Source of the DNA: Flagellimonas sediminis | Lineage (GTDB): Bacteria > Bacteroidota > Bacteroidia > Flavobacteriales > Flavobacteriaceae | Length of the DNA: 64,000 nucleotides | Direction of reading: 5' to 3' | Assembly (NCBI RefSeq): GCF_010500845.1 | Contig: NZ_JAAAMI010000005.1 | Location: forward strand, 62,001 to 126,000 | Shown here: one piece after another, positions 5,719 to 19,494 of the stretch | Layout: every line of letters starts with the position of its first letter | How positions within the stretch are numbered: position 1 is the stretch's first letter | Notes under the pieces: generated by a model | Databases searched by the model: none | Seen by the model: only the letters and a program-made list of their open reading frames with translations | Told to the model about the DNA's origin: nothing | Program-made: the position numbers and the translations under genes

Positions 5719-5791
5719 TCTTTATTTTTGTGGTCGACGGCACCAAAGCCCCAAAGATTAATCGAAACCTTTTTAAAAACCACTACTAAAA

Positions 5792-5812
5792 AAGCCCGCT
5801 ATAAGCGGGCTT
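5792..5812. terminator. Bidirectional terminator between nifJ and the DUF2141 gene
   Basis: AAGCCCGCT-ATA-AGCGGGCTT is a perfect 9-bp stem with a 3-base loop between convergent genes. It is preceded by a run of A on the plus strand, which gives a U-run for the minus-strand transcript. Confidence 0.85.
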
Positions 5813-5842
5813 AACGTTGTTGATTGATGAGGTATTGTTTGA

Positions 5843-6262
5843 CTAAAATCGGATGGTAAGTTCCAAATCATCACCACCCACTTCAAATTTGGAAGCTGAA
5901 AAACTTGGAGGGCCAAACGACATATCGTTCCCGGACATGCCGTAACTTTCCTTTGGCATTCCATTGGATTGGTAGTCCATACGGTTATTTTCATTGGCAT
6001 CATGCAAGGCCATTATGGCATAAGTTCCAGGGGCAACACCGGTAAAAGTAAATACTACTTTCCCATTCTCAATTTTGCTTTCTTGGTTTTGCACACCAGG
6101 TCCTTTCATGAAAGTGTCCATGGTGTGAAGGCTTGCCAATACCTTTCCTTCGTTGTTGGAAATGTTGTCAATGGTAACGGTGATCTTGGTGCCGGTCCTT
6201 TCCTGTGCCATGGCAACAATGCTGACGAACAAAAAACTCAATGCTAGTGTAACAGTTTTCAT
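5843..6262 (-). CDS. Secreted DUF2141 protein
   Basis: A 139-residue exported protein with a clear signal peptide (LSFLFVSIVAMAQ, cleavage near residue 19) and a single beta-rich DUF2141 domain. Typical family signatures are GKVLASLHTMDTF, VAPGTYAIMALHDANENNRMD and a C-terminal region ending VGGDDLELTIRF. The biochemical function of DUF2141 is unknown. The HDANENNRMD segment, which recurs in the family, could bind a metal, but that is speculation. It is transcribed alone, divergent from the TonB-dependent receptor across about 210 bases. Confidence 0.9.
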   Translation of the reverse strand: MKTVTLALSFLFVSIVAMAQERTGTKITVTIDNISNNEGKVLASLHTMDTFMKGPGVQNQESKIENGKVVFTFTGVAPGTYAIMALHDANENNRMDYQSNGMPKESYGMSGNDMSFGPPSFSASKFEVGGDDLELTIRF

Positions 6263-6473
6263 AGGGTTTGTTTTTGATGTTTTGTTGCCACAAATCTCGC
6301 ATGCAACTCTTTCTTTAAAAATTACAATCTACCGAATTGTCAATTTTCGGGTATGAACTGTAATGGGAAAATTGCCGTTCCAATTCATCATTAAAAATCA
6401 ACAGTTGGGTATATCCTATTGGTTTGGCAACTGATGTCTGGTCAATTTTGCGGCAACAATCAAATGAACAGTC

Positions 6474-8636
6474 ATGAAAAACATTATTATCGTATTCGTA
6501 CTTTTTTTACCACTAGGATTCCTGTCTGGCCAGACCACGGTTTCGGGAATCGTAACTGATGCCAAGAAAACCCCGATCGAGGGTGCCAATGTATATTTGG
6601 AAGGCACTTATGATGGAGCCTCTACCGACAAAGACGGTAGATTTACTTTTGAAACGGAGGAAACAGGTGCCCAAACCTTGGTGATTTCCATGTTGTCCTA
6701 CGAGCCTCATTACGAGATCGGTGACGTTTCTTACTTCAAGGATTTGAAGATCCAACTGGCGGAGGCCATCAATTCCCTTTCTGGAGTCACCTTGACAGCC
6801 GGCACCTTTGAAGCTGGGGACAATTCCAAAGTATCCGTGTTGAAGCCATTGGATATTGTAACCACTGCGGGAGCAGCAGGCGATTTTGTGGCGGCACTTC
6901 AAACCTTGCCGGGTACTACAACGGTCAATGAGGATGGCCGTTTGTTCGTAAGGGGAGGATCGGCCAACGAGACCCAGGTGTTCATTGATGGGCTCCGGGT
7001 ATTCCAACCGTTCAGTGCCACCGCTAACAATACACCCACTCGGGGTAGGTTTTCGCCCTTTCTTTTTAAGGGAATTACCTTTAGTACAGGAGGTTATTCA
7101 GCTGAGTATGGGCAGGCACTTTCCAGCGTGTTGCTGTTGAACACTTCGGATGTTCCGGATCAGGAAAAGACCGATATTTCCATTATGTCTGTCGGTGCCG
7201 GTTTGGGACATACCGAAATTTGGGGAGACCAATCTCTAAGTTTGAACACTTCGTACATCAACCTTGCGCCTTACGAAGCATTATTGCCCTCCACAAATGG
7301 AGTAAATTGGAGGAATCCCTATGAGTCGTTTTCTGGCGAGGCTGTTTTTAGAAGTAAAGGTGAAAAGAGCATGTTCAAACTTTATACGGGATTTAACCAC
7401 TCCAATCTGGATATTGAGCAGGAAGACATCAACTATGTTGATTATGTTCACTTTCAATTGACCAATAACAACCTTTACTTTAACTCTTCCTATAAGTATT
7501 TTTTTCAAAATGATTGGAGCTTGACCAGTGGTGCCAGCATTGCTTGGGATACCAATGACATCGGTATTGAAAGCGATAAAGTAGATACAAAGGAGACGGC
7601 ATCCCATATAAAAATAAAAGCCAGGAAAAACTTCAGCAGCAGGTTTGATCTTAATTTTGGGGCAGAGGTATTCATGTCAAAATACGATCAAGGCTATACC
7701 AATTTTGAAGGAACCAATTTCAATACTGGATATGATGAAAACCTTTGGGCAGGTTTCATGGAGTCCGATATTTTCTTGAGCAACAAGTTTGCCTTGAAGT
7801 TGGGGGTTAGGGCAGAACAGAGCACCCTTCTGGATGAATTCAACCTTTCGCCAAGAATGGCTTTGGCCTACAAACCAGGGGAATTTGGGCAGTTTTCCTT
7901 GGCCTATGGTGATTTTTACCAAAGACCGAATTCCGACATCGTGAAATTTGAAAACAACCTGCAGTTTGAAAAAGCCTCCCACTACATTTTGAATTACCAA
8001 TATGTGGGTAAAGGCAAGACCTTTCGTGCAGAAGCATATTTCAAGGATTATGATCAATTCGTGAAGTATAACACGGAAATGCCTGAGTTTAGTTCCCAAT
8101 ATTCCAATTCAGGTGAAGGGTATGCAACGGGGTTGGACCTATTCTGGCGAGATAACAAGAGTATTGAGCACTTGGATTATTGGGTTTCTTATTCCTATTT
8201 GGATACGGAAAGGGACTATGCCAACTTTCCAACAAGTGCCACTCCCAATTTTGCCGCCCAACACAACCTTTCCGTGGTGACCAAATATTGGGTGGATAAA
8301 CTAAGATCACAGATAGGGTTCTCCTATTCCTATGGATCGGGAAGGCCATATAACAATCCAAATACGTCCACTTTTATGGGAGAAAAGACCCGATCTTACA
8401 ATAATCTGAGCTTTAATTGGGCCTATTTGATAGATCAGCAGAAGATTCTATACTTTTCGGTCAGCAATATGTTGGGATTCAAGAATGTGAGTAATTATCA
8501 GTATGCCGATGGGCCCAACATGGAAGGAGTCTACAACCGAAGGGCCATTACCCCTCCTGCGGACAGTTTTGTCTTTGTGGGTTTCTTTTGGACCATCAGT
8601 TCCGATAAGAAAAGCAACCAATTGGACAACCTGTAA
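6474..8636 (+). CDS. TonB-dependent outer membrane receptor with carboxypeptidase-regulatory domain
   Basis: A 720-residue outer membrane transporter. A signal peptide (to about residue 20, LGFLSGQTTVSG) is followed by a carboxypeptidase-regulatory-like beta-sandwich (about 21-105, GIVTDAKKTPIEGANVYLEG). Next is a plug domain (about 120-230, with GRLFVRGGSANETQVFIDG and FSTGGYSAEYGQALSSVLLL) and a beta-barrel ending in aromatic strands (FVFVGFFWTISSD), though the last few residues (KKSNQLDNL) are polar. The substrate cannot be told from sequence and there is no SusD partner next to it, so a polysaccharide locus is unlikely. Its stop codon abuts the stop of the convergent DoxX gene with no base between. 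Confidence 0.93.
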   Translation: MKNIIIVFVLFLPLGFLSGQTTVSGIVTDAKKTPIEGANVYLEGTYDGASTDKDGRFTFETEETGAQTLVISMLSYEPHYEIGDVSYFKDLKIQLAEAINSLSGVTLTAGTFEAGDNSKVSVLKPLDIVTTAGAAGDFVAALQTLPGTTTVNEDGRLFVRGGSANETQVFIDGLRVFQPFSATANNTPTRGRFSPFLFKGITFSTGGYSAEYGQALSSVLLLNTSDVPDQEKTDISIMSVGAGLGHTEIWGDQSLSLNTSYINLAPYEALLPSTNGVNWRNPYESFSGEAVFRSKGEKSMFKLYTGFNHSNLDIEQEDINYVDYVHFQLTNNNLYFNSSYKYFFQNDWSLTSGASIAWDTNDIGIESDKVDTKETASHIKIKARKNFSSRFDLNFGAEVFMSKYDQGYTNFEGTNFNTGYDENLWAGFMESDIFLSNKFALKLGVRAEQSTLLDEFNLSPRMALAYKPGEFGQFSLAYGDFYQRPNSDIVKFENNLQFEKASHYILNYQYVGKGKTFRAEAYFKDYDQFVKYNTEMPEFSSQYSNSGEGYATGLDLFWRDNKSIEHLDYWVSYSYLDTERDYANFPTSATPNFAAQHNLSVVTKYWVDKLRSQIGFSYSYGSGRPYNNPNTSTFMGEKTRSYNNLSFNWAYLIDQQKILYFSVSNMLGFKNVSNYQYADGPNMEGVYNRRAITPPADSFVFVGFFWTISSDKKSNQLDNL

Positions 8637-9059
8637 TCATTTCTGCATTTTTAGATAATAATCTACAGAATGCTTTCCAGAACCATAAACCACAAAAAAG
8701 ATGCAGGCTATGAACATCAGTATGGCCAAGATGAGATTGGTCGTGTGCATGGTTCCCAAAAAATTGGCCAAAATGGCCCCTGCAAGTATTGGAAGTTGGG
8801 CAATGGATGCCCAACGGGTGAGAAGTCCAACAACGATCAAAATACCGCCCACAAAATGCGCAGGGGCAATATAATGAAGAATGATCATGCCGCCAGGAAG
8901 GTCTTGAAACGGCCGTGCCATTTCGGCCATCTCTTCATAATTGGTTATGAATTCGATGCCTTTGATAAAAAGAAATACACCGAGAAATATTCGTATTAAA
9001 TCCAGTGGATAATAAGTGTGTGCATTGGCCCACTTATTCAGGTTTTTTACTGTTCCCAT
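8637..9059 (-). CDS. DoxX-family membrane protein
   Basis: A 140-residue inner membrane protein with four predicted helices (about 17-33, 60-80, 86-104 and 108-128). It has the DoxX arrangement: LDLIRIFLGVFLFIKGIEF near the start, HYIAPAHFVGGILIVVGLLT in the second helix, and a short polar tail. Family members are linked to quinone-dependent respiration or to redox partners in other bacteria, but most are uncharacterised. It appears monocistronic and converges on the TonB-dependent receptor gene. Confidence 0.85.
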   Translation of the reverse strand: MGTVKNLNKWANAHTYYPLDLIRIFLGVFLFIKGIEFITNYEEMAEMARPFQDLPGGMIILHYIAPAHFVGGILIVVGLLTRWASIAQLPILAGAILANFLGTMHTTNLILAILMFIACIFFVVYGSGKHSVDYYLKMQK

Positions 9060-9200
9060 GGGTGTTTAGTTTTAGTCGTGAGCTTTTAAGTTACTCATTT
9101 TAAACCAGGTAAGAAAATTTAAGATCCAAAATTTTCTTATTTACATAGGGATTAGGTAATAAAATATAGGTTAATATGAGGGGCCATCAATCGTTAAAGC

Positions 9201-9677
9201 CTAATTGAGTAGTAGTTCCATCTGAATGTCGCTGCGTTCATAAGGCGATGTGGCCCCTACCATTTCCACAAATCCAAGTTTTTGGTACAGTGATAGGGCA
9301 GGCGTCAGTATTCGGTTGCTTTCCAAGTACAATTTTTTGGCACCCAAAGCTTTGGCTTTTTGAATCATGTGTTGCCCTAATAGTTTTCCGATTCCCTTAC
9401 CTTGGGTAAGAGGGGAAACGCCCATTTTGGCCAACTCAAATTCATAGTCTTCACGATTACTGGGAATAAGGGCACAAACCCCAACGGCAATATCGCCCAT
9501 CAAGGCCACGGCAATGTAACCACCCTTGTCCAAAATGTATTCTTTGGGATGATGGAGTGACATGCGGTCCATTTCTTCCATTTTGAAGTATTTGGTTATC
9601 CATTCTTCATTCAATCGCCTAAAATCATCTTGGTATTTATCCGAATACGGGATGATGGTTATGGTTTCTGACATCAT
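9201..9677 (-). CDS. GNAT-family N-acetyltransferase
   Basis: A 158-residue cytosolic acetyltransferase. The acetyl-CoA loop is visible as VSPLTQGKGIGKLLGQHMIQKA (about residues 88-109), preceded by the beta-4 strand ELAKMGV and followed by KLYLESNRILTPALSLYQKLGF, the usual C-terminal beta-5/alpha-4 region. The substrate is unknown. Two Met codons begin the frame and the first was kept. The 256 bases between it and the divergent PorP gene are AT-rich and show no clear gene; a 65-codon open frame there has no support. Confidence 0.9.
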   Translation of the reverse strand: MMSETITIIPYSDKYQDDFRRLNEEWITKYFKMEEMDRMSLHHPKEYILDKGGYIAVALMGDIAVGVCALIPSNREDYEFELAKMGVSPLTQGKGIGKLLGQHMIQKAKALGAKKLYLESNRILTPALSLYQKLGFVEMVGATSPYERSDIQMELLLN

Positions 9678-9933
9678 GGTTCAATCGAGATTAATGCTTC
9701 AAAATTAAATCTAATTTGGAAGGTTTGGGCCAATTATCACTTGATGAATGTGTTAAATTGAGGAGTGATGGTGCCGTTCAACGAAAAAATTGGCTCATTG
9801 GCGATATTTTATTTAATATTGTATTACATTTAGTAATAAAACTCTTACAAGTCCCAAATCTTGCTAATGAGACCAAACAACACATATCCGCCTATCCCGA
9901 ACAGGCACATTAACCTACTTAATCCAATCGGCT

Positions 9934-11721
9934 ATGGAGATAAGACTACTACTATTTTTCAAAAAATTACCCCTAAGATGTGCTGAAAATGCACTGTTGC
10001 CAATTCTGATCATCATGTTCCTGGCCCATAATGTGGCGGCCCAGGAAAGCAATCCTTATGTAAGCTACGATGTTCCTTTTCAAAATTTGTTGAAATTCAA
10101 CCGATTTTTGATCAACCCTACATTTTCAGCGGTTCGGGAAGACAAATCCTATGTGAACCTGTTTCATCGCAGTCAAAGCGCCGCGTTCGATAACAATAGA
10201 CAGAACTATTTCCTGAGTTACAGTGGTAGATTGAACGATATGGTGGGTGTGGGTTTCAGTCTGTACAACCAGCAAGAAGGTGTCATTTCTAACTTGGGGG
10301 TGATGGCCAACTATTCCCATGGCATTAAATTGGGTGAAGAGAGCAGCCTTACCTTTGGGGTCAATATTCCCTACTACGTGAGTAGTTATGATCCAAGCAG
10401 GGCCGTTACCCTTGAAGAGGACCCCCTTTTGGACGACGCAACGGAAAGTTCCATTATTTCCTTTCAACCCGGTTTGAACCTTTCGTTGGGCAAGTTTGAT
10501 ATTGGGGTGTTTGCCCAAAATCTAGTGGATTACAATATCAAATCAGGAAAATCCTTGACCGCTTTGGACAACAAAACGTTTTCTGGCCATCTACAATATA
10601 CCTATGAGTTTGAAAATGGGTACGGGGTCTTTGAAGACGGCCGTTTGTTACCCTTGGCAAGGGCTCGTTTTGAGGGAAACAACGACCCGGTTTTTGGTGG
10701 AGGTATTATCATGGACCTGCCCAAATTGGGATGGATACAAGGAGGATATGACCAGTTTTATGGTGCTTCTGCGGGAGCAGGTTTCAATTTGAACCGCAGA
10801 CTTTCCTTTGGGTACAATTTTGAGAAAAATTTGGGCAATACCAATGCCAATTTGGGAATCACCCACGAAATTTCCATTGCCTATACCTTTATTCCCAACC
10901 TTTCCAAAAACACATTTATTGTTGATAACGACGAGTTGAAGAAGGATACCAAGCAAGTCGCTGCTGCCGAGGTTACAGACAATCTGGATAAGGAATCCGA
11001 TTCCAAAAAGAGCAAGTTGGATGTAGAGACAACTTTGAGACCCAACAACAAGGAGGATTTGGCATTTTGGGAGGCCCAGTTAAAAGAATTAAAAGCCCAG
11101 CAAGAAGATAACTATGCCGTTATCAATGAGCTGGTATACCGCATGGATTCCCTTGAAAAGAATAGGGAACGTGATATGGAGAAACGTTTTGAGATGGTCA
11201 TGCGCATTGTAAAAAGGCACACGGGAAACAAGATTCCCGAAATAGAGGATAAAGCCCAGAAGCTCTATCTAGCGGACAGCAAAGACCTGGATTCTATTTA
11301 TAGTTCCATTGAAAAATCCGCGTTGGCGGAAAACACTCCCAAGGATAAACCAACAAAAGTGGCAGATAAAAAGGCTGAGGGAAAATTTCATGGAGGGGCC
11401 TATAAGCCGATTGAAAAGTATATCAACTTGGATGGTGTGGGCCAAGGACATTATATCGTGGCGAACGTATTCAAGAACGAGACCAACTTGAAGAACTTTA
11501 TGGCCAAATTGAAGTCCCAAGGACTGGAGGCCCAATACTTCAAAAACCCGGATAATGGACTGAACTATGTGTACTTGGCCAAATATCAGGAAAATGAGGA
11601 TGCCTTGGCGGCCTATCAATCCAACTTAAAGGGTAAGTACACCAATGAATTGTGGATCATGCACGTGGAAAACCCAAGGTATTCCAATTGGGCAGATGCC
11701 ATATTTCAAGATATCGAGTAA
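9934..11721 (+). CDS. PorP/SprF-type outer membrane protein with C-terminal SPOR-like domain
   Basis: A 595-residue protein. The N-terminal 320 residues match the PorP/SprF family of the type IX secretion/gliding machinery: a signal peptide ending near AHNVAAQ, then FNRFLINPTFSAV, a string of beta-strands such as GVGFSLYNQQEGVISN, and FSFGYNFE-type barrel repeats ending at EISIAYTF. A charged, partly coiled-coil linker follows (about 330-480), and the last 85 residues (YIVANVFKNETNLKNFMAKL onward) resemble a SPOR or related peptidoglycan/protein-binding fold. PorP/SprF genes usually follow a giant adhesin gene; here there is none. The C-terminal extension may anchor the barrel to the periplasm. 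The N-terminal call is firmer than the C-terminal one. Confidence 0.85.
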   Translation: MEIRLLLFFKKLPLRCAENALLPILIIMFLAHNVAAQESNPYVSYDVPFQNLLKFNRFLINPTFSAVREDKSYVNLFHRSQSAAFDNNRQNYFLSYSGRLNDMVGVGFSLYNQQEGVISNLGVMANYSHGIKLGEESSLTFGVNIPYYVSSYDPSRAVTLEEDPLLDDATESSIISFQPGLNLSLGKFDIGVFAQNLVDYNIKSGKSLTALDNKTFSGHLQYTYEFENGYGVFEDGRLLPLARARFEGNNDPVFGGGIIMDLPKLGWIQGGYDQFYGASAGAGFNLNRRLSFGYNFEKNLGNTNANLGITHEISIAYTFIPNLSKNTFIVDNDELKKDTKQVAAAEVTDNLDKESDSKKSKLDVETTLRPNNKEDLAFWEAQLKELKAQQEDNYAVINELVYRMDSLEKNRERDMEKRFEMVMRIVKRHTGNKIPEIEDKAQKLYLADSKDLDSIYSSIEKSALAENTPKDKPTKVADKKAEGKFHGGAYKPIEKYINLDGVGQGHYIVANVFKNETNLKNFMAKLKSQGLEAQYFKNPDNGLNYVYLAKYQENEDALAAYQSNLKGKYTNELWIMHVENPRYSNWADAIFQDIE

Positions 11722-11724
11722 AGA

Positions 11725-12336
11725 TTATTGTTGTTTTCCTTGCATGTTTTGGGCAATGGCCTTACTGCCCGGATCTTCCCTTTCACCAAGCTCCGAAATG
11801 ATCACGGCATGGTCTTCGGGCCGGGTTTGGGATAGTTTGTAAGTGGCTTGGATGTCAGATATCAAAATTTGAAACCCTACAACCCCTTTAACCTGTCGTA
11901 AGGTTTTGGGCGATATGTTGTCAAGCGAAATCGGGTTTTTGGAGCTTTTTTCATACTTGTCCACCAATCGGTGCATGGAAGCCATGGTTTCTTCCTCGGT
12001 CAAAAGATCCAATTTCCCATAGACATGCACGGCAATGTAATTCCAAGTAGGAACTTCCTCCTCTTTGTACCAAGATGAAGAGACATAGGCGTGTGGACCA
12101 TTGAAGATGCACAAGACCTCATTGTCCTTTCCCAAAACCTTGGATTGCGGATTGGCTTTTGCAATATGTCCAACCAATATGTCCCGCCCCTCCTTGTCCT
12201 TTTCCAATTCCAATGGAATGTGGGTGCCCCAAGGTCTGTTGTCCACAACATTGACCAAGATGCCGAAACTGTTTTCTGCTAGAAATCTCTTGATTTCCGG
12301 TAAATCTTTGTTCTCGTAATAGGCAGGGATGTACAT
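11725..12336 (-). CDS. PaiB-like FMN-binding protein
   Basis: About 203 residues, of the PaiB family (flavin-binding split-barrel proteins annotated as negative transcriptional regulators). Recognisable stretches are MYIPAYYENKDLPEIKRFLA at the start, GTHIPLELEKD, GHIAKANPQ, IFNGPHAYVSSSWY and VPTWNYIAVHVYGKL, which line the flavin site in this family. The frame is open 25 codons further upstream, but the ATG before YIPAYYE matches the family start and the upstream residues are unlike it. In Bacillus, PaiB works with PaiA. No paiA is adjacent here, so the role is uncertain. Only three bases separate it from the convergent PorP gene. Confidence 0.87.
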   Translation of the reverse strand: MYIPAYYENKDLPEIKRFLAENSFGILVNVVDNRPWGTHIPLELEKDKEGRDILVGHIAKANPQSKVLGKDNEVLCIFNGPHAYVSSSWYKEEEVPTWNYIAVHVYGKLDLLTEEETMASMHRLVDKYEKSSKNPISLDNISPKTLRQVKGVVGFQILISDIQATYKLSQTRPEDHAVIISELGEREDPGSKAIAQNMQGKQQ

Positions 12337-12393
12337 GGTTTGTGGTGATAAACAGTTAAATTGTAAACCACGAAGATCGGTTAAAAATGGACA

Positions 12394-12420
12394 TAAAAAA
12401 AGCGGGACCAATGTCCCGCC
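12394..12420 (-). terminator. Intrinsic terminator after the DUF4382 lipoprotein gene
   Basis: Read on the minus strand, GCGGGAC-ATTG-GTCCCGC is a 7-bp GC-rich stem followed directly by seven T. It is a textbook intrinsic terminator, 25 bases past the lipoprotein stop. Confidence 0.92.
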
Positions 12421-12445
12421 CTATTATCTTGAAGAGGCTGTTAGG

Positions 12446-13345
12446 TTAATTTCCTGCCTCTACTGCTACCGCTTCAAGTACAAAATCTTGGGTGGTCTTG
12501 TTTCCTGCCACGATTTCCACTTCAAAGGTTTCGCTGGTAACGTATCCGTTCAAGGAAGAATACACTTTGTAAGTACCGGCATCCAATCCCATGATGGCAT
12601 AGGCACCATCAATATCAGTAGACCCGGAAGTCACTGGTTCATCGTCCAGGTTTGTTACCACAATTTCAGCATTTTCGAGGGCAACGGGTGTTTCACCGTC
12701 CATGGTGGTCACCAAACCACTCAAGGTTCCCGCAGTGGAAAGGTTGCTAACTTTGATCACAGGCTTAAAGTTGAAACCGGTAATACCATCCACTTTGGTG
12801 GTGCTGCCTTTGACCACAAAGGAGCGGCTAACGTCAAAATCCAATAAAAGGTCACTACTTAATCCGCCGGCAACGGTAAGTGCCGGGTCAAAGAAAACTT
12901 TGATGCCTGTTTGGGGGCCACTGGGTACGGTAAGGTCAAAAGTACGCCCATCCGTAAGCACCACATTCACACCTTTTACATACACCCTGATCAGGTCATA
13001 GGTGCCTGCAGGAACATCCAAATCTGCCAATTCTTGGGTCACACCGTTGGTAAGATCTAAAAGGTTTACCGGGATTTCTTCTTCCATTAAGGTAACGAAA
13101 GGATAGCCGTCTTCTTCACTATCTCCTTCCACATCTTCATCTTCACTGTCTACCAATCTTGCATCCACCTTAAAAACGGTTACGTTGGCCTCTGCCACCA
13201 TATCAAAAGGGAAAGGGGCATCGGTCAATTGAAGGGTAAGCCTACCCATGGTATCGCCATTTCCTCCATTGCCAGCGTTATTGGAACATCCAACAAAGAC
13301 AAGTAATACAAGGCTCAATGCAAAATAAAAGATTTTAGTTCTCAT
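12446..13345 (-). CDS. DUF4382 lipoprotein with carboxypeptidase-regulatory-like domain
   Basis: A 299-residue surface or periplasmic lipoprotein. The signal peptide has lipobox LVFVGC (Cys20). A DUF4382 beta-sandwich follows (about 33-190), starting GRLTLQLTDAPFP and containing a very acidic segment (DSEDEDVEGDSEEDG) that may bind calcium. A C-terminal carboxypeptidase-regulatory-like domain (about 205-290) has LSGLVTTMDGETPVALENAE, DIDGAYAIMGLDAGTYKVYS and ends VAGNKTTQDFVLE. DUF4382 has no assigned function. The domain pair suggests a structural or adhesive envelope protein. It is monocistronic with its own terminator. Confidence 0.9.
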   Translation of the reverse strand: MRTKIFYFALSLVLLVFVGCSNNAGNGGNGDTMGRLTLQLTDAPFPFDMVAEANVTVFKVDARLVDSEDEDVEGDSEEDGYPFVTLMEEEIPVNLLDLTNGVTQELADLDVPAGTYDLIRVYVKGVNVVLTDGRTFDLTVPSGPQTGIKVFFDPALTVAGGLSSDLLLDFDVSRSFVVKGSTTKVDGITGFNFKPVIKVSNLSTAGTLSGLVTTMDGETPVALENAEIVVTNLDDEPVTSGSTDIDGAYAIMGLDAGTYKVYSSLNGYVTSETFEVEIVAGNKTTQDFVLEAVAVEAGN

Positions 13346-13400
13346 AAATAAGGGGTTTTATTTAATAAAAATGTTTCCCTAAATACGTGCAAACACTGAA

Positions 13401-13426
13401 AAACAGCCTATTTGGGCTGCTTTTTT
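13401..13426. terminator. Terminator-like hairpin inside a divergent intergenic region
   Basis: CAGCC-TATTTG-GGCTG is followed on the plus strand by CTTTTTT and on the minus strand by GTTTTTC. It stands between two divergent genes, about 55 bases upstream of the DUF4382 lipoprotein start, where a terminator is not expected. It may be a leader attenuator or the end of a small transcript. A second dyad, GGCTAT/ATAGCC, lies about 70 bases further right. Confidence 0.5.
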
Positions 13427-13634
13427 CGATAAACTACAGGTTTTTTTAAGATATTCTTTGTCTTTTTTCAAGAACTGCAGGCTATTATCAATGATAGCCC
13501 CAAAACCCTGAAAGCTTCTTTTTGACTTCATTATGACGATCCATCCCCTATAATTGACAACTCGGTTATTCTTTGTTTTGGTTGTGCTAGGACATGATCA
13601 ATTTTGGACCATCTAAATCAATTAAAACAAAGTC

Positions 13635-14267
13635 ATGAAAAAACTGATAACACTTTTATTGCTTGTTGGAACCTCAGTTGCCCAAGTACAGGCACAAGCC
13701 AAGGACCAATACACCAAGGGAATGGAAAAAGCCTTTGAGTTGTGGGGAAATCAAAAAACGGTAGAGGCTTCCAATCTATTCGAACGGATTGCCACTGCCG
13801 AACCCGATAATTGGTTGCCCTACTATTATGTTTCACAGGTGAATACCGTGGTCTCCTTTGGAGAAAAGGACGAAGAGAAACTGAGCAAACAATTGGAAAA
13901 GGCCCGTGAATTTTTGGATGTGGCCAAGGCCATTTCACCTGATAATCCCGAAATCTTGATACAGGAGGCATTGATCAACACGGCATGGATCGCTTTTGAT
14001 GGGGCAACCTATGGCATGACCATGTCCCAAAAGAACGTGCAATTGTACCAAAAAGCCCTAGAGTTGGACCCGAACAATCCCCGAGTAGTTTTTTCCAAAG
14101 CGGAATGGGATATGGGAGCTGCTCGCTATTTTGGAAAGGATACCGCACCGTATTGCAAGGATGTGGAAAGGGCGTTGGAACTTTTTGCTACCTTTAAATC
14201 CGATACACCATTTTATCCGTCATGGGGCAAAGAAAGGGCAGAGCAGGTATTGGCGGCATGTAAATAA
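13635..14267 (+). CDS. Secreted TPR-like protein
   Basis: A 210-residue exported protein with a signal peptide (LITLLLLVGTSVAQVQAQ, cleavage near residue 21). A helical region reads as degenerate tetratricopeptide repeats (for example AEPDNWLPYYYVSQVNTVVS, AKAISPDNPEILIQEALINT, KALELDPNNPRVVFSKAEWD). It should act in the periplasm. Its stop is only six bases from the start of the histidine kinase gene, so the two are almost certainly co-transcribed, and it could be a periplasmic partner of the kinase/2TM system. No catalytic motif is visible and the specific function is unknown. Confidence 0.85.
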   Translation: MKKLITLLLLVGTSVAQVQAQAKDQYTKGMEKAFELWGNQKTVEASNLFERIATAEPDNWLPYYYVSQVNTVVSFGEKDEEKLSKQLEKAREFLDVAKAISPDNPEILIQEALINTAWIAFDGATYGMTMSQKNVQLYQKALELDPNNPRVVFSKAEWDMGAARYFGKDTAPYCKDVERALELFATFKSDTPFYPSWGKERAEQVLAACK

Positions 14268-14273
14268 GACAGA

Positions 14274-15602
14274 ATGAAGCTTATCATTAAGGAAATATTC
14301 AAATCGTTTTTAGTGGGGGTCGCCATTTTTCTGGTGGTCCTCATTATTCTTTTCCTAAACGGCTGGCAATTTACCATGCAAGAACTGTGGTCCGAGTTTT
14401 GGGAAAGTATGATTTTCTCCATGACCATCTATCTCTGTAATGCGGCCTCTTTCATTCTGTTGATGCGCAAGTACAACAAAGAACTCTTCACCCGGAAGTA
14501 CATTGGTTATGGTATCCTGGGCAATATTGTAGCCTCCATAATCGGTATTTTCCTGTCAAGGGTTTTGTTGAAGGTAATCATGCACAAAATGCCTTTTGAC
14601 GCTTTTTTGATGTCGGAAAGACCACAGTACTATGTCAACTCCTTTTTTATATCGATGGTGGTCGCGCTACTGTTCTATGCCGCCTATTTTTATAAGTATT
14701 ACAAGGAGCGCCAGGTAAAGGAGCAAAAAATCATTGCAGGGTCGGCATCGGCGCGCTTTGATGCCCTGAAAAACCAGTTGGATCCCCATTTTTTGTTCAA
14801 CAGCTTGAATGTGCTCACCAGTTTGATCGAAGAAGATCCAGAACAGGCCCAAAAATTCACCACATCGCTTTCCAAAGTATACCGTTATGTTCTGGAGCAA
14901 AAGAACAAGGATTTGGTAACGGTGGACGAGGAGCTAAATTTTGCACGCACCTATGTTCGTCTGTTAAAGATGCGTTTTGAGGACAGCATTATTTTCGATA
15001 TTCCCGAGAAATGCACCCAGCCCGATGCCAAGATTGTTCCACTTTCCTTGCAATTGTTACTGGAGAATGCGGTTAAGCATAATGTGGTCACCAGTTCCAA
15101 ACCGCTTCATATAAAAGTTTTTGAACAGGGTGGCATGTTGGTGGTGACCAACAACCTTCAAGAAAAGCAGGTGGTGAAAAAGAGCAGTGGGGTAGGTCTG
15201 CAGAATATTCGGCAACGATATCAAATTTTGACCGATCGTGCTGTAATCATCAACAAGACAAATATAGATTTCAGTGTTGCCCTTCCCATGCTTACCCAAA
15301 AATATTCTATAGTGGCTTCTCAGGAGAGCTATATTGAAGAAAAGCGGTATGCCAAGGCCAAGGAGCGTGTAAAAGCCATTAAGGACTTCTACGGCAACCT
15401 TATTGCCTATTGCATCGTGATTCCTTTCTTGTGGTGGATTAATTTGCGTACCACGGATTTTCTTTGGGCCTTCTTTCCAACCATAGGTTGGGGATTTGGT
15501 GTTGCTGCCCACGGCATGGAAGCTTTTGGTTATAACCCACTGTGGGGTAAACGTTGGCAAGAACGCAAGATCCGCGAACTTATGGAAAAGGATGATTTTT
15601 AG
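14274..15602 (+). CDS. LytS-type sensor histidine kinase with C-terminal 2TM domain
   Basis: A 442-residue inner membrane kinase of the LytS/YehU (His_kinase) type. Four N-terminal transmembrane helices (about 14-34, 46-64, 78-100 and 122-140) precede the phosphoacceptor region DPHFLFNSLNVLTSLI (His172). The ATPase domain has the N-box LLENAVKHN (about 262) and the G-box SSGVGLQNIRQRY (about 304-316). Unusually, the chain continues with a complete 2TM domain (about 357-442): RYAKAKERVKAIKDFYGNL, two hydrophobic helices, GWGFG, then NPLWGKRWQERKIRELM. It is cotranscribed with the upstream TPR gene. The tandem 2TM genes and a LytTR regulator follow. The kinase probably phosphorylates that regulator; the signal is unknown. 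Confidence 0.93.
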   Translation: MKLIIKEIFKSFLVGVAIFLVVLIILFLNGWQFTMQELWSEFWESMIFSMTIYLCNAASFILLMRKYNKELFTRKYIGYGILGNIVASIIGIFLSRVLLKVIMHKMPFDAFLMSERPQYYVNSFFISMVVALLFYAAYFYKYYKERQVKEQKIIAGSASARFDALKNQLDPHFLFNSLNVLTSLIEEDPEQAQKFTTSLSKVYRYVLEQKNKDLVTVDEELNFARTYVRLLKMRFEDSIIFDIPEKCTQPDAKIVPLSLQLLLENAVKHNVVTSSKPLHIKVFEQGGMLVVTNNLQEKQVVKKSSGVGLQNIRQRYQILTDRAVIINKTNIDFSVALPMLTQKYSIVASQESYIEEKRYAKAKERVKAIKDFYGNLIAYCIVIPFLWWINLRTTDFLWAFFPTIGWGFGVAAHGMEAFGYNPLWGKRWQERKIRELMEKDDF

Positions 15603-15825
15603 TTCAATCAACAATTGTCAATGACCAATCATCAATTAACTGATCCCAGAAATGGGATGTCAGATTAAATTCATTCACCCTTCACCTCTGGTCCTTCAAC
15701 CTTCATGTTAAACTCCCCCTTCCTACGGTTCATCCTTCAAAATCAACAATTCAAGAACCAAGTTTTTCAATCCTCCTTTTAGCTTGCGACTTTTGGTATA
15801 TCAATAACTTAAAAATCAAACAGAC

Positions 15826-16104
15826 ATGGAAAATGTATCACAAAGCAGTTATGAGAGGGCCAAAAAAAGAGTATGTCACCTTAAGGCTTTCTACAATAGT
15901 TTGTTCGCGTATTGTATCATAATCCCGGTTTTGGTCTATATCAATTACCGCACCACCAGTTTTCCCTGGGCCATTTTTCCGGCAGTAGGATGGGGTATGG
16001 GCCTTATCGGTATGTGGTTGTCCGCTTCCGGTAGAAACCCATTATTAGGTAAGGACTGGGAAGAACGCAAGATCAAAGAATTTATGAACAGCGATAATTT
16101 TTAA
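15826..16104 (+). CDS. 2TM domain protein, array copy 1
   Basis: A 92-residue small membrane protein made almost only of one 2TM domain: a basic amphipathic helix (YERAKKRVCHLKAFYNSL), two transmembrane helices (about 27-44 and 49-68) joined by a short turn, and the conserved tail NPLLGKDWEERKIKEFM. It is clearly the closest of the five copies to the C-terminus of the histidine kinase (shared AYCI-IP, INxRTTxFxWAxFP and GWGxG), so one probably arose from the other. A 223-base gap with no recognisable gene separates it from the kinase. The function of 2TM domains is unknown. Confidence 0.88.
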   Translation: MENVSQSSYERAKKRVCHLKAFYNSLFAYCIIIPVLVYINYRTTSFPWAIFPAVGWGMGLIGMWLSASGRNPLLGKDWEERKIKEFMNSDNF

Positions 16105-16148
16105 CAATGAGTATCTTTAACTGTCAGACCACATCAACAACCAAAGTC

Positions 16149-16451
16149 ATGGAAAATTCTAACAGAGAAAACAAATACCTCCGCGCCAAGGAACGGGTGG
16201 ATGAACTTAAAAAGTTTTACGGGAACCTTACATCCTATGTCCTGGTCATATCCGGATTGGCATTTATCAATTATTACAGCAACGGTTTTGGTTACATGTG
16301 GTTCTTATGGGCCGCTTTTGGATGGGGTATCGGATTGATGTTCCATGCCATTAAAGTGTTCGATCTTAATCCCTTATTTGGAAGAAACTGGGAAAAGCGT
16401 AAGATTGAGGAGTTTATGAAAGAAGAAGAAAATACCGATAAATGGAAATAA
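16149..16451 (+). CDS. 2TM domain protein, array copy 2
   Basis: About 100 residues, a single 2TM domain: KYLRAKERVDELKKFYGNL, two membrane helices with the signature FGWGIGLMFHAIKVF in the second, and NPLFGRNWEKRKIEEFMKEE at the end, with an acidic tail. An upstream ATG at 16107 would add 14 residues, but the internal ATG gives the MEN start shared by copies 1, 3 and 4 and was chosen. It is followed after two bases by the next copy, so the array is one transcript. Confidence 0.87.
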   Translation: MENSNRENKYLRAKERVDELKKFYGNLTSYVLVISGLAFINYYSNGFGYMWFLWAAFGWGIGLMFHAIKVFDLNPLFGRNWEKRKIEEFMKEEENTDKWK

Positions 16452-16453
16452 CC

Positions 16454-16759
16454 ATGGAAAATTTAGAAAACGACAAATATACAAGGGCCAAAAAAAGGGT
16501 CGAAGAGTTGAAAGGGTTCTATGTTCACCTAAGCATTTATGTGGTGATAAACACGTTTGTTTTGGTGAACATTTATGTGCAGACTGACAATTTCTGGCAA
16601 TGGCCCCATTTTCTTACCTTGTTCGGGTGGGGATTGGGATTGGCCTTCCATGCAGCAAAGGTATTTGGGGCAAACCCGCTTTTGGGCAAGGATTGGGAAG
16701 AGCGCCAGATCCAGAAGTATATCGATAAGGATAAGGAGGACATCAACAAATACTTATAA
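16454..16759 (+). CDS. 2TM domain protein, array copy 3
   Basis: About 101 residues with the 2TM layout KYTRAKKRVEELKGFYVHL, two hydrophobic helices, FGWGLGLAFHAAKVFG, NPLLGKDWEERQIQKYIDKD and an acidic C-terminal tail. The ATG two bases after the preceding stop was chosen because it gives MENLEN, like its paralogues. An ATG twelve bases earlier overlaps copy 2 and is possible. Confidence 0.87.
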   Translation: MENLENDKYTRAKKRVEELKGFYVHLSIYVVINTFVLVNIYVQTDNFWQWPHFLTLFGWGLGLAFHAAKVFGANPLLGKDWEERQIQKYIDKDKEDINKYL

Positions 16760-16768
16760 ATCAAAGTT

Positions 16769-17101
16769 TTGGAAAATTTAAACCGGAAATACGAAAGAGC
16801 CTCCAAGCGAGTGAAAGAATATATGGGTTTTTACCGACATGTAAAAATCTTTATCGTCATCAACGGATTGTTATATCTGCTAAAAACCGGCACATTGAAC
16901 CGTTTGATGCCCGAATGGTTCCCAACAGAACCGTATTACTTTGATTGGGTAACCAGTAACATTTTTATTTGGGGATTGATTTTGGCCGTACATGCCTTAT
17001 ATACCTTTCGACATAAAATTCCACTGTTGAAAAATTGGGAAGAACGTCAGATTCAAAAATATTTGGAGAAGGAAGAGGAAGGAGTGGATGAATTTAAATG
17101 A
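16769..17101 (+). CDS. 2TM domain protein, array copy 4 (TTG start)
   Basis: About 110 residues. It begins at a TTG codon, giving MENLNRKYERASKRVKEYMG, which aligns exactly with the MEN starts of its paralogues; no suitable ATG exists upstream. This copy diverges: the loop between the two membrane helices is longer and contains PEWFPTEPYYFDWV, and FGWGxG is replaced by FIWGLILAVHALYTF. The tail LKNWEERQIQKYLEKEEE is conserved. Its stop overlaps the next start in ATGA, suggesting translational coupling. Confidence 0.85.
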   Translation: MENLNRKYERASKRVKEYMGFYRHVKIFIVINGLLYLLKTGTLNRLMPEWFPTEPYYFDWVTSNIFIWGLILAVHALYTFRHKIPLLKNWEERQIQKYLEKEEEGVDEFK

Positions 17102-17436
17102 GCAAAATGGAAGTCTATAATTCTTATGAAGTGGCCAAGAAAAAGGTGGGGGCTATCAAAGGGTTTTATGCCCACGTGGCACTGTTCATTTTCATCAGTG
17201 TTTTGATGCTGTCTGCCAAAGGAGCTATTTTGGATGTGATGGCGGAAAAGAACAAAGAGGCCGACCCTAATTTTGTGGAGTGGTTGGATTGGAATATCAT
17301 TGCCGTCATTCTAATTTGGGCGGCGGTGATTTTTGTTCAGGGACTTGTGGTCTTTGGGCGACCTTTTATCAAAAAGTGGGAAAAAAGGAAAATTGAAGCA
17401 TACTTGGAAAGGGATAAAAATGAAACCTTTCTTTAG
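17098..17436 (+). CDS. 2TM domain protein, array copy 5
   Basis: About 112 residues and the most divergent copy. It keeps SYEVAKKKVGAIKGFYAHV at the N-terminus and IKKWEKRKIEAYLERD at the C-terminus, but has a longer charged loop between the helices (VMAEKNKEADPNFVEWLDW) and no FGWG signature. The start overlaps the preceding stop by four bases; a second ATG nine bases later is an alternative that gives an MEV start. The response regulator gene begins 20 bases after its stop. Confidence 0.83.
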   Translation: MSKMEVYNSYEVAKKKVGAIKGFYAHVALFIFISVLMLSAKGAILDVMAEKNKEADPNFVEWLDWNIIAVILIWAAVIFVQGLVVFGRPFIKKWEKRKIEAYLERDKNETFL

Positions 17437-17456
17437 AAAATTATAAAACAGAACGT

Positions 17457-18212
17457 ATGAATGTGATCATCATCGAAGATGAAAAACCGGCTGCGAGACG
17501 ATTGGCGAGGTTGTTGTCAGAACAGCAAATAGAGGTGTCCACCATGCTCCATTCCGTGGATGAATCCATCGAGTGGTTCCAGAACAACCCGCACCCCGAT
17601 CTAATCTTTTTGGACATCCAATTATCAGACGGACTTTCGTTCGAAATCTTCGATGTGGTAGAGGTAAAAAGTGCCATCATTTTTACCACTGCTTATGACG
17701 AATATGCACTCCAGGCTTTCAAGTTGAACAGCATCGATTATCTCCTAAAACCTATTGATGATGAAGAGCTCGAAACCGCTGTAAAAAAGTACCGGAATTT
17801 TAAACCTGAAAACCAAAAAATTTCAGTTGATTTCAACGACATAAAAAAGCTTTTGGTGAACCCCTTGGAGCGGGAATATAAAAAACGATTTACGGTGAGG
17901 GTAGGGCAACATTTAAAGATCATCAACGCCGATGATGTGGAATGTTTTTACAGTGAAAACAAGGGCACCTACGCAGCCACTTCCGATGGTAGAAATTATT
18001 TATTGGATACCACGCTGGAGCAATTGGACGAGGAACTTTCTCCCCAAGCATTTTTTAGGGTAAGCCGCAAATTTTATGTGAATGTCAACCACATAGGAGA
18101 TATCATTTCATACACCAATTCAAGGCTCCAAATCAAGTTGAACCGTTTTAACGAGCAGGAAATCATAGTAAGCAGGGAGCGGGTAAAAGACTTTAAGTTA
18201 TGGTTGGAATGA
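17457..18212 (+). CDS. LytTR-family response regulator
   Basis: A 251-residue DNA-binding response regulator. The receiver domain (1-120) has the acidic pair E7-D8, phosphoacceptor D53 in IFLDIQLSDGLSFE, the Thr of TTAYDEYA and Lys in YLLKPIDD. The C-terminal LytTR domain (about 140-250) has FTVRVGQHLKIINADDVECF, FFRVSRKFYVNVNHI and LQIKLNRF. It is the last gene of the locus and the natural partner of the LytS-type kinase 3 kb upstream. A bidirectional terminator follows. The target genes are unknown, but autoregulation of the 2TM operon is common for such systems and is plausible here. Confidence 0.95.
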   Translation: MNVIIIEDEKPAARRLARLLSEQQIEVSTMLHSVDESIEWFQNNPHPDLIFLDIQLSDGLSFEIFDVVEVKSAIIFTTAYDEYALQAFKLNSIDYLLKPIDDEELETAVKKYRNFKPENQKISVDFNDIKKLLVNPLEREYKKRFTVRVGQHLKIINADDVECFYSENKGTYAATSDGRNYLLDTTLEQLDEELSPQAFFRVSRKFYVNVNHIGDIISYTNSRLQIKLNRFNEQEIIVSRERVKDFKLWLE

Positions 18213-18251
18213 TGTTATTTAATAACATGAAAATCAATGTAAATATATATA

Positions 18252-18291
18252 AAAAAAATCCACTATAAATTTTTCTTATAATGGATTTTTT
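18252..18291. terminator. Bidirectional terminator after the LytTR gene
   Basis: The arms AAAAAATCCACTATAA and TTATAATGGATTTTTT form a long stem with one mismatch around an ATTTTTC loop. A-runs and T-runs flank it on both sides, so it can end both the regulator transcript and the convergent LETM1-like transcript. Confidence 0.85.
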
Positions 18292-18303
18292 AAGTGAAAA
18301 AGG

Positions 18304-19494
18304 CTAGTTTTTCTCTATTCTGTTGTCGTCAAAAGCGGAAGGGAGCAACTTGGGTATTAGCTTGATGAAAATAGGCAAGAGGACGGCTCCACCAGGTAGC
18401 ATAAAAATGGCCAATGAGGGAATGCTTTTAAAAATATCGAGCAGTTGGTTCTGCACTTTTTTCTTCTCTTCGGCACTCAGATCTTTCACAGTCGATTTGG
18501 ATAAAAGGGCAACCAATTCCCTACTCTCGGCTAGCTCTTTTTTGAGTCGTTTGCTGTTTCTCAAAATGAGTTTACTCACGTTTTTGGACATTCCTTCGTA
18601 GAACTGGACGGCCAAATTTTTGTCGTTTAAATAGGCTATTTTTTCTCGATTTTTTTCAAAGAAATCCATCACAAAATCAAGCTCGGCCCGCACCTCTTTT
18701 TCAGACTTGCCAAGGTCCTTTCCAAGACCAAAAATATAGTCCGATTCGGTATAGTCGACTGACTTGTCTTCCCATATGGTCAAGCAGGCCATATCCAAAA
18801 AATAATCCTTCTCAAAAGAGTTGAAATTTTGGTCCAAAAGATCCAGATAGGACCCATCGAATTTTGCTTTGTCCAGGTCCACAAAACTTAATGAAGAACC
18901 TAATAATTGGATGAGCTTGGCATCAGTTTCATGCTCCTCTTTAGAGTTCAGTGCATGGTAGGCAATGTTGATGGTAACGTATTCCAAAAGTTGACCGTGT
19001 TGCTTCACATCCATTTTTCCTTGTAGGTAGGTCATAAAGATCAACACATCCACATAAAGCAACGAATTAGTCAAGCTGTTTCCAAACGTACGGTTGAATG
19101 TATTGCCACTTAAATAGATTCTGGAATCAATCAGTTTTTCCAGTTGGGACTCAGTTTTAGAACCGGTCAAAATCTTGTTCAGGAACGAAATCCTGCCTAC
19201 TTCCAGGGATTGATAGTAGGCAAAAACAGTATCTACAAATTGGGTAAAATCGGTTTTTCCTTTTTCAAAAGTATAGGTAAAATAGAGAGCGGTCAACAAA
19301 TTGATCTTGGCTATCTCGTCCTCGCTAAGGGTATGTTCCACCTCAATAAAGGGGGGAATGTTCAGGTGAACCCCATATATAAAACCATGCGCTTTGAGGT
19401 CTTTGTATAGGCTATCAAAGCTCCCATAAGGTGAGGACTCATTGTTGACAAGGTGACCAAACTTGTTGATCCAACCAGATGCAGAAGGGTTCAT
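18304..19494 (-). CDS. LETM1-related protein
   Basis: About 396 residues. The start MNPSASGWINKFGHLV was preferred over a Met seven codons upstream, because the extra residues (TRKPRS) look non-native. The C-terminal 70 residues carry the LETM1-like signature: charged helix SAEEKKKVQNQLLDIFKSIP, then a hydrophobic segment ending FMLPGGAVLLPIFIKLIPKL, then PSAFDDN. The rest is helical and of unknown fold. Flavobacterial homologues of this architecture are sometimes labelled LETM1-related biofilm-associated proteins; mitochondrial LETM1 handles cation/proton exchange. The bacterial function is not established. It is monocistronic. Confidence 0.75.
   Translation of the reverse strand: MNPSASGWINKFGHLVNNESSPYGSFDSLYKDLKAHGFIYGVHLNIPPFIEVEHTLSEDEIAKINLLTALYFTYTFEKGKTDFTQFVDTVFAYYQSLEVGRISFLNKILTGSKTESQLEKLIDSRIYLSGNTFNRTFGNSLTNSLLYVDVLIFMTYLQGKMDVKQHGQLLEYVTINIAYHALNSKEEHETDAKLIQLLGSSLSFVDLDKAKFDGSYLDLLDQNFNSFEKDYFLDMACLTIWEDKSVDYTESDYIFGLGKDLGKSEKEVRAELDFVMDFFEKNREKIAYLNDKNLAVQFYEGMSKNVSKLILRNSKRLKKELAESRELVALLSKSTVKDLSAEEKKKVQNQLLDIFKSIPSLAIFMLPGGAVLLPIFIKLIPKLLPSAFDDNRIEKN

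What the first reader, a model, noticed from the sequence alone, without database searches (positions are those of the whole stretch)
13635..18212. A signalling locus with five tandem 2TM proteins between a LytS-type kinase and its LytTR regulator
Seen: a secreted TPR protein, a histidine kinase with a C-terminal 2TM domain, five separate small 2TM proteins (92-112 residues) and a LytTR response regulator in one direction. All 2TM units share a basic N-terminal helix (RAKKRV..LK.FY) and a tail NPLxGKxWExRKIxExM. Known: 2TM is a domain of unknown function often found next to such kinases in Bacteroidota. Inferred: the small proteins may oligomerise with the kinase and set its membrane sensing, like small membrane modulators of two-component systems.
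Basis: partly seen in the sequence, partly recalled or inferred. Interest (0 to 1): 0.75.

Follow-up and report, generated by a model that had tools for sequence, protein, structure and literature searches.

The report
Self-regulating kinase with spare membrane anchors
Flavobacteria carry a conserved sensor-kinase locus in which one to six small membrane proteins, kin of the kinase's own membrane tail, sit between the kinase and its gene regulator; the regulator is predicted to switch on this locus and a set of cell-surface genes, and the small proteins likely tune the kinase, which would make a little-known membrane domain open to direct testing.

Summary
In detail: TPR protein, histidine kinase with a C-terminal 2TM domain, five free 2TM proteins and a LytTR response regulator on one strand. 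It is no local oddity: in 146 of 157 loci with such a kinase the regulator follows, always with one to six free 2TM genes between; of the other 11, nine run into a contig end and two show no regulator in 4.9-5.7 kb.
(1) A LytTR-type direct repeat (half-sites 21 bp apart) lies before the operon, before the array, and before genes for a TonB-dependent receptor, DUF2141 and DUF2807 proteins. The window's four sites end 63-70 bp before their start codons. In 25 genus genomes the exact spacing gives 70 matches, one base more gives 6. In five genera a DUF2141 gene stands at the head of the kinase operon itself. (2) In the 2TM tree free copies fall among kinase tails several times; one clade of tails is rejected (p-AU 0.008).
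Best reading: an autoregulated envelope-sensing two-component circuit whose free 2TM proteins likely pair with, and tune, the kinase tail. Binding and pairing are inferred.

The parts
13536..13566 (+). LytTR-type direct repeat upstream of the operon (degenerate: 3 mismatches to the pattern), ends 68 bp before the TPR start codon
   Evidence: 18 of 76 operon promoters scored have both half-sites exact
13635..14267 (+). TPR protein with a hydrophobic N-terminus (likely secreted), first gene of the operon
   Evidence: one hydrophobic segment at residues 4-20
14274..15602 (+). LytS-type histidine kinase: 4 predicted N-terminal TM helices, His_kinase (H172 in HFLFN), ATPase boxes, C-terminal 2TM
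15354..15587 (+). C-terminal 2TM tail of the kinase (residues 361-438)
   Evidence: PF13239 97.9 bits
15725..15755 (+). second LytTR-type direct repeat (3 mismatches), in the kinase-array gap, ends 70 bp before 2TM copy 1
15826..16104 (+). 2TM copy 1, groups with kinase tails in the tree
16107..16451 (+). 2TM copy 2 (likely start at ATG 16149)
   Evidence: clade of 21 rows with orthologues in other genera, SH-aLRT 100
16442..16759 (+). 2TM copy 3, in the class (47-row clade) that also holds lone copies of several one-copy loci
16769..17101 (+). 2TM copy 4, divergent, longer loop
17098..17436 (+). 2TM copy 5, most divergent, longer loop
17457..18212 (+). REC-LytTR response regulator (Asp 53)
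6331..6361 (-). LytTR-type direct repeat (1 mismatch), ends 68 bp before the DUF2141 gene
5843..6262 (-). DUF2141 protein, predicted target
6380..6410 (+). LytTR-type direct repeat (2 mismatches), ends 63 bp before the TonB-dependent receptor
6474..8636 (+). TonB-dependent receptor (CarboxypepD_reg + Plug), predicted target

Best explanation
This is a conserved, likely autoregulated two-component circuit of Flavobacteriaceae in which a LytS-type kinase with a C-terminal 2TM tail, one to six free 2TM proteins and a LytTR regulator are encoded together, the regulator likely binds 21-bp-spaced direct repeats in front of its own operon, the 2TM array and a small set of envelope genes, and the free 2TM proteins likely assemble with the kinase tail and tune it. 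Shown by sequence: gene order, repeats with fixed spacing and near-fixed distance to start codons, shared target genes across genera, and kinship of tail and free 2TM domains. Inferred: that this regulator reads the repeats, that it activates, that free 2TM hairpins (both ends K/R-rich, hence probably cytoplasmic) pair with the kinase tail, and that array expression driven by the regulator closes a feedback loop, most likely damping the kinase as LiaF damps LiaS. The signal would be a change at the cell envelope, since the likely targets are a TonB-dependent receptor, a DUF2141 protein and a DUF2807 (Toastrack) lipoprotein next to pspC.
For: Locus conserved: regulator found downstream, with 1-6 free 2TM genes between, in 146 of 157 loci (named and unnamed sets share some genomes). 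Repeats: two half-sites at 21 bp in 76 operon promoters: 18 exact, 17 with 1, 8 with 2 mismatches; shuffles 0, 0, 0.4 (partly circular, the half-site came from these promoters). Independent of that: 96 kinase-array gaps (Flagellimonas and near genera): 28 exact, 40, 20; shuffles 0, 0.1, 0.4. Genus, 25 of 25 genomes, 70 matches, 1 reversed; spacing +1 gives 6. Family, 1 mismatch, 60 matches in 32 of 60 genomes, 0 reversed; by my reading, 53 of 60 lie at operon (22), array (3), TonB receptor (12), DUF2807 (9), DUF2141 (7). In 6 of the 22 the site is 0.47-0.71 kb from the TPR or kinase gene; in 5 of these 6 the gene between is DUF2141, at the head of the operon. Ortholog test: a site with 4 or fewer mismatches upstream of 24 of 25 receptors and 21 of 25 DUF2807 genes (5 or fewer: 25 and 24); shuffles 0.0 at 4, 0.2-0.5 at 5; region 580-800 bp upstream never below 6. 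Genomes with the kinase-2TM cluster hold a site in 31 of 44, without it in 1 of 16. The spacing agrees with 9-bp repeats and 12-bp spacer of LytTR regulators (PMC6193735, passages). Tail/free exchange: 7 changes, 4 forced by starred branches, one clade of tails rejected, p-AU 0.008. L094 and L119.
Against: No binding, phosphotransfer or protein contact was measured. 28 of 76 operon promoters score at chance level (4-6 mismatches), among them all six loci of the sister family f5. The window's own operon and array sites have 3 mismatches each. 28 of 60 family genomes show no site at 1 mismatch, 13 of them with the cluster. The cluster/site association is not corrected for relatedness, and most genomes without the cluster are small. 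Other LytTR regulators of the genome could read the same repeats. The tail/free pattern can also come from gene conversion inside the array, the 23 tail-like free rows were picked after seeing the first tree, and the alignment has under 100 columns. Two loci (L070, L076) have no regulator match nearby. The kinase model is of middling confidence (pLDDT 71.9, pTM 0.40) and says nothing on complexes.
Confidence: 0.6

Rival explanations
1. The free 2TM proteins are outputs rather than modulators: small membrane-stabilising proteins made under stress, while the kinase tail is only a membrane anchor or senses their abundance passively.
For: The array has its own regulator-type site in Flagellimonas and close genera, like a target gene; the other likely targets are envelope proteins; 2TM also occurs as a plain fusion part of dihydrofolate reductase in 6 of 6 sampled relatives (two of them checked by Pfam), so it can be a mere anchor.
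Against: A free copy is kept in every locus where the regulator was found (146), also where no separate array site exists (42 of 54 family/order loci); free copies group repeatedly with kinase tails.
Confidence: 0.3
2. A nutrient-uptake circuit: the kinase senses a solute whose uptake through the TonB-dependent receptor is induced, as BtsS or YpdA kinases do for pyruvate (recalled).
For: The receptor is the commonest target among the sites resolved (21) and in some genera lies directly upstream of the operon, e.g. L312, L322, L329.
Against: DUF2807/Toastrack next to pspC, and DUF2141, are not known as transport genes (recalled).
Confidence: 0.25
3. The array is a neutral tandem duplication hitch-hiking in a housekeeping two-component operon.
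For: Copy number varies 1-6; copy 5 evolves fastest.
Against: dN/dS well below 1 for all five, a copy-2 clade across genera, regulator-type sites kept before the array.
Confidence: 0.08

Closest known systems
LytTR Regulatory Systems (HdrRM, BrsRM of Streptococcus mutans; PMC6193735, passages seen)
   Same: LytTR regulator encoded with membrane proteins; direct repeats mostly with 12-bp spacer upstream of the own operon; autoregulation (here predicted)
   Different: those systems consist minimally of regulator and membrane inhibitor; here there is a histidine kinase and a receiver domain, and the membrane proteins are PF13239
LiaFSR / PSP-type envelope stress systems (PMC11237479, passages seen)
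   Same: two-component system with membrane modulators (LiaF gives inhibitory feedback on LiaS) and company of pspC and Toastrack (DUF2807) genes
   Different: no PspA/LiaH, LiaF or PspC domain in this operon; Toastrack and pspC are elsewhere in the genome
LytSR / BtsSR / YpdAB LytS-type two-component systems
   Same: PF06580 kinase and REC-LytTR regulator (NCBIfam BtsR and LytR hits far below cut-off)
   Different: no 5TMR-LYT domain among the Pfam hits; extra C-terminal 2TM tail and free 2TM genes between kinase and regulator
Small membrane modulators of kinases such as MgrB-PhoQ (recalled)
   Same: short membrane proteins near a sensor kinase
   Different: here they are homologous to a domain of the kinase itself and come in arrays

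Membership tests
PF13239 2TM domain | profile match over the curated cut-off | tested here: met
   kinase tail and all five small proteins
LytS-type (PF06580) two-component system | His_kinase domain with HFLFN histidine and partner REC-LytTR regulator | tested here: met
LytSR proper | N-terminal 5TMR-LYT sensor domain (recalled as its mark) | tested here: not met
   no such Pfam hit at E up to 0.1; 4 predicted N-terminal TM segments
LytTR Regulatory System (LRS) | direct repeats with 11-13 bp spacer upstream of the own operon | tested here: met
   21-bp period in 43 of 76 promoters at 2 mismatches or fewer; the window's own site has 3 mismatches
LytTR Regulatory System (LRS) | regulator controlled by a membrane inhibitor rather than by a kinase | tested here: not met
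   kinase and receiver domain present
Lia/PSP system | PspA/LiaH, LiaF or PspC encoded in the operon | tested here: not met
   none in the eight proteins; a pspC-Toastrack gene lies about 24 kb away beside a likely target
Lia/PSP system | induction by envelope stress | not testable with these tools
   needs expression data

The most novel reading that the evidence does not exclude
The kinase's own C-terminal membrane anchor has been copied out again and again as free-standing decoy subunits that the pathway's own regulator expresses, so that array size and array promoter set the gain of the circuit: a copy-number volume knob made of spare anchors, wired to a conserved Flavobacterial envelope regulon.
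Probability: 0.33. Interest if true: 0.78.

Novelty: new variant of a known kind. Interest (0 to 1): 0.62.

Why it matters
PF13239 has no paper under that accession in the held library, and a profile of the free copies has no match among solved chains. The locus gives the domain a setting, partners and a predicted regulon whose sites can be tested by gel shift and reporter in a laboratory strain. If free copies of a kinase's tail tune that kinase, it is a simple evolutionary route to feedback: duplicate the anchor and put it under the regulator. It would also give Flavobacteriaceae a candidate envelope-stress pathway beside pspC and Toastrack genes.

Tried and rejected
Considered and rejected: (a) a known RNA element in the 223-bp gap: no Rfam match at gathering score in 5500-19000; the gap holds a regulator-type site. 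(b) Structural kin of 2TM: the 101-aa model (pLDDT 83.9; helices 2-43, 50-71, 75-100) has no PDB match at E up to 0.001 by Foldseek. (c) Own-genome 3-mismatch hits at C1:974442 and C23:424044 (L346, L347) have no convincing target and are taken as chance. (d) The F. johnsoniae kinase/LytTR pair with parallel mutations in PMC10197871 (passages): FJOH_RS09515/09520 have neighbouring locus tags, so it is probably another pair; not resolved. (e) Papers: searches showed nothing on this locus or its regulon. I saw passages of six papers (PMC11237479, PMC10197871, PMC10057207, PMC5395568, PMC6193735, PMC10434189) and only listings of the rest, among them the ten papers naming a 2TM domain-containing protein.

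Rows dropped or chosen: one search returned the best 80 of 171 relatives, so the named set is made of close kin. Of the non-operon sites, three 2-mismatch sites (G036:C14, G056:C6, G066:C1) were not fetched. In one search the sites of L308, L309, L332, L343, L344, L347 and the operon site in L328 gave no first ORF by my rule. The class counts for one search were made by hand; seven of 60 sites have another or no target. L399 counts as a miss although its contig start makes my fixed offset wrong there. In one search I used 94 of 231 rows: 63 tails (L122_T left out as a long branch), 23 free rows picked as tail-like from the first tree, 8 partner-class rows as outgroup. In one search the array-site threshold was 3 mismatches of 14.
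Full report
Observation. The kinase has four predicted N-terminal TM segments, the PF06580 domain with His 172 in HFLFN, ATPase boxes and a C-terminal 2TM domain; a model of middling confidence (pLDDT 71.9) shows the same order of helices and domains. The small proteins are predicted hairpins with K/R-rich N- and C-terminal parts (in copy 3 my hydropathy rule found only the first segment), modelled for copy 3 as a long first helix, a second helix and a C-terminal helix. dN/dS against the closest congeners is well below 1 for all five.

Distribution. The genome is a Flagellimonas/Allomuricauda (named relatives at 92-97 % kinase identity). PF13239 is found in 71 of 71 genus genomes, 53 of 60 family genomes, 15 of 60 in the order sample, 14 of them above the cut-off, and 23 of 99 in the phylum sample; each sample includes the own genome. 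With the window, 157 of 161 hold a kinase with 2TM tail (three of the other four were fetched as solitary 2TM hits, the fourth is L119). In 146 of 157 the regulator follows, each time with 1-6 free 2TM genes between. Of the other 11, nine end within 1.4 kb of the last hit (L223 with 1.2 kb after the kinase and no 2TM), and two, L070 and L076, have 1 and 3 free copies but no regulator match in 5.7 and 4.9 kb. In the 54 family/order loci with regulator the copy number is 1 in 15, 2 in 17, 3 in 16, 4 in 5 and 5 in 1. The sets overlap in some species. L094 has a kinase with two 2TM domains in one ORF; L119, from another family of the class, has a free 2TM, a tailless kinase and a LytTR regulator side by side.

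The 2TM tree. 231 domains from 64 loci, only 98 columns, so many forks are open. Three patterns stand out. Kinase tails and some free copies mix: Flagellimonas copy 1, the second copy of family f5, copy 1 of L081/L083/L087/L103 and others lie among tails. Copy 2 of Flagellimonas has orthologues in other genera (21 rows, SH-aLRT 100). In 13 of 15 one-copy loci the lone free copy lies outside the 125-row group that holds the tails (exceptions L094, L122); copy 3 of the window is of that outside kind. So the simplest system may be a tail plus one distinct partner. A smaller tree of 94 chosen rows needs 7 changes for the tail-like free rows, 4 forced by starred branches, and rejects one clade of tails (p-AU 0.008). 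Gene conversion could mimic this, and the grouping was chosen after the first tree.

Regulator sites. Counting words in operon promoters gave ACARTTC pairs; 19 of 25 pairs of half-sites are exactly 21 bp apart. Scored as two half-sites at that distance, 43 of 76 promoters have 2 mismatches or fewer against 0.4 from shuffles; this is partly circular, since the word came from these promoters. 28 of 76 score 4-6, which is chance, among them the six f5 loci. The kinase-array gap of Flagellimonas and near genera holds a second site: 88 of 96 gaps with 2 mismatches or fewer against 0.5 in shuffles (five further loci hold no array gene). In 54 family/order loci, 12 have an array site, all with gaps of 86-154 bp, and 42 have none, all but one with gaps of 43 bp or less. 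The spacing matches the 9-bp repeats with 12-bp spacer reported for LytTR regulators (PMC6193735, passages).

Regulon. The longer pattern ACARTTCAKC-N11-ACARTTCRGT finds, in the own genome with up to 3 mismatches, 7 sites and none reversed: operon, array, a divergent pair at window 6331-6361 and 6380-6410, one before a DUF2807 lipoprotein gene that follows a pspC-Toastrack gene (L226/L345), and two doubtful ones. The four window sites end 68, 70, 63 and 68 bp before their start codons. Genus sample: 70 matches in 25 of 25 genomes, 1 reversed, 6 with spacing increased by one. Family sample at 1 mismatch: 60 matches in 32 of 60 genomes, none reversed. First genes downstream of the fetched non-operon sites cluster into TonB-dependent receptor (21), DUF2141 (13), DUF2807 (11), TPR operon (6), then small groups. 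While checking I found that six of the 22 operon-class sites of the family sample stand 0.47-0.71 kb from the TPR or kinase gene; in five the gene directly behind the site is DUF2141 (Pfam 100-127 bits), in L124 a short ORF without match. So DUF2141 is a separate target in some genera and the first gene of the kinase operon in others. Turning the question round, 25 of 25 genus orthologues of the receptor and 24 of 25 of DUF2807 have a site with 5 or fewer mismatches in the 220 bp upstream; shuffles give 0.2 and 0.5, a control region 580-800 bp upstream none below 6. Genomes with the cluster carry a family-pattern site in 31 of 44 cases, those without in 1 of 16 (Fisher p 1.2e-5, not corrected for relatedness).

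How it likely works. A kinase anchored at both ends of its catalytic core would sense a change at the envelope, phosphorylate the LytTR regulator, and raise its own operon, the array and a small envelope regulon. Free 2TM hairpins, kin of the tail, would assemble with the tail and shift the kinase's activity; making them under the regulator would close a loop. I favour damping, by analogy with LiaF on LiaS (PMC11237479, passages), but the sign is open. Shown: genes, order, repeats, shared targets, kinship. Inferred: who binds the repeats, activation, pairing, sign, signal.

Comparison. It works like LytTR Regulatory Systems in its repeats and membrane partners, and like Lia in having membrane modulators and Toastrack/pspC company, but is a member of neither: it has a kinase and receiver (unlike LRS) and no Lia/Psp domain in the operon. 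It is a LytS-type two-component system without the 5TMR-LYT sensor. Hence a new variant of a known kind.

Noticed in passing
L401-L406 (unnamed Flavobacteriaceae); own genome L004:926-1863: The 2TM domain outside the locus is fused to dihydrofolate reductase in one ORF in 6 of 6 sampled relatives (two confirmed by Pfam), with a thyA-like gene nearby (by eye); in the window's genome the 2TM and DHFR genes are separate neighbours. A membrane-tethered DHFR seems likely.
   Followed up: partly
L066, L089, L102, L103, L123: A DUF2141 gene heads the kinase operon directly behind the regulator-type site, whereas in the window DUF2141 is a separate likely target.
   Followed up: yes
L106-L109, between 2TM copies 1 and 2 (e.g. 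L106:4615-5181): Family f5 has a gap there that in L106 and L109 holds an ICMT/PEMT-type methyltransferase gene (Pfam for L106, by eye for L109; L107 and L108 only show the gap).
   Followed up: partly
L093, L123, L117, L095, L135: Other genes inserted in single loci: amidohydrolase (L093, L123), ArnT-like membrane enzyme (L117), small membrane protein (L095), and an opposite-strand surface protein gene between kinase and array (L135), where the array should need its own promoter. Names by eye from the sequences.
   Followed up: no
L118: A second kinase-LytTR pair follows directly after the locus.
   Followed up: no
L299:18-48 and L344 (G046 and G108): Identical 31-bp regulator-type sites in two genera; L299 and L339 carry a similar ~205-aa protein gene behind their sites (no Pfam match for L299), which may be a gene moving between species.
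   Followed up: no
L318, L349: Sites also precede similar genes for a serine beta-lactamase-like hydrolase (PF00144 in L349).
   Followed up: no
FJOH_RS09515/FJOH_RS09520 (PMC10197871, passages): A LytTR regulator and a kinase with neighbouring locus tags were mutated, one or the other, in all five coevolved F. johnsoniae lines; whether the pair is related to this locus was not resolved.
   Followed up: partly
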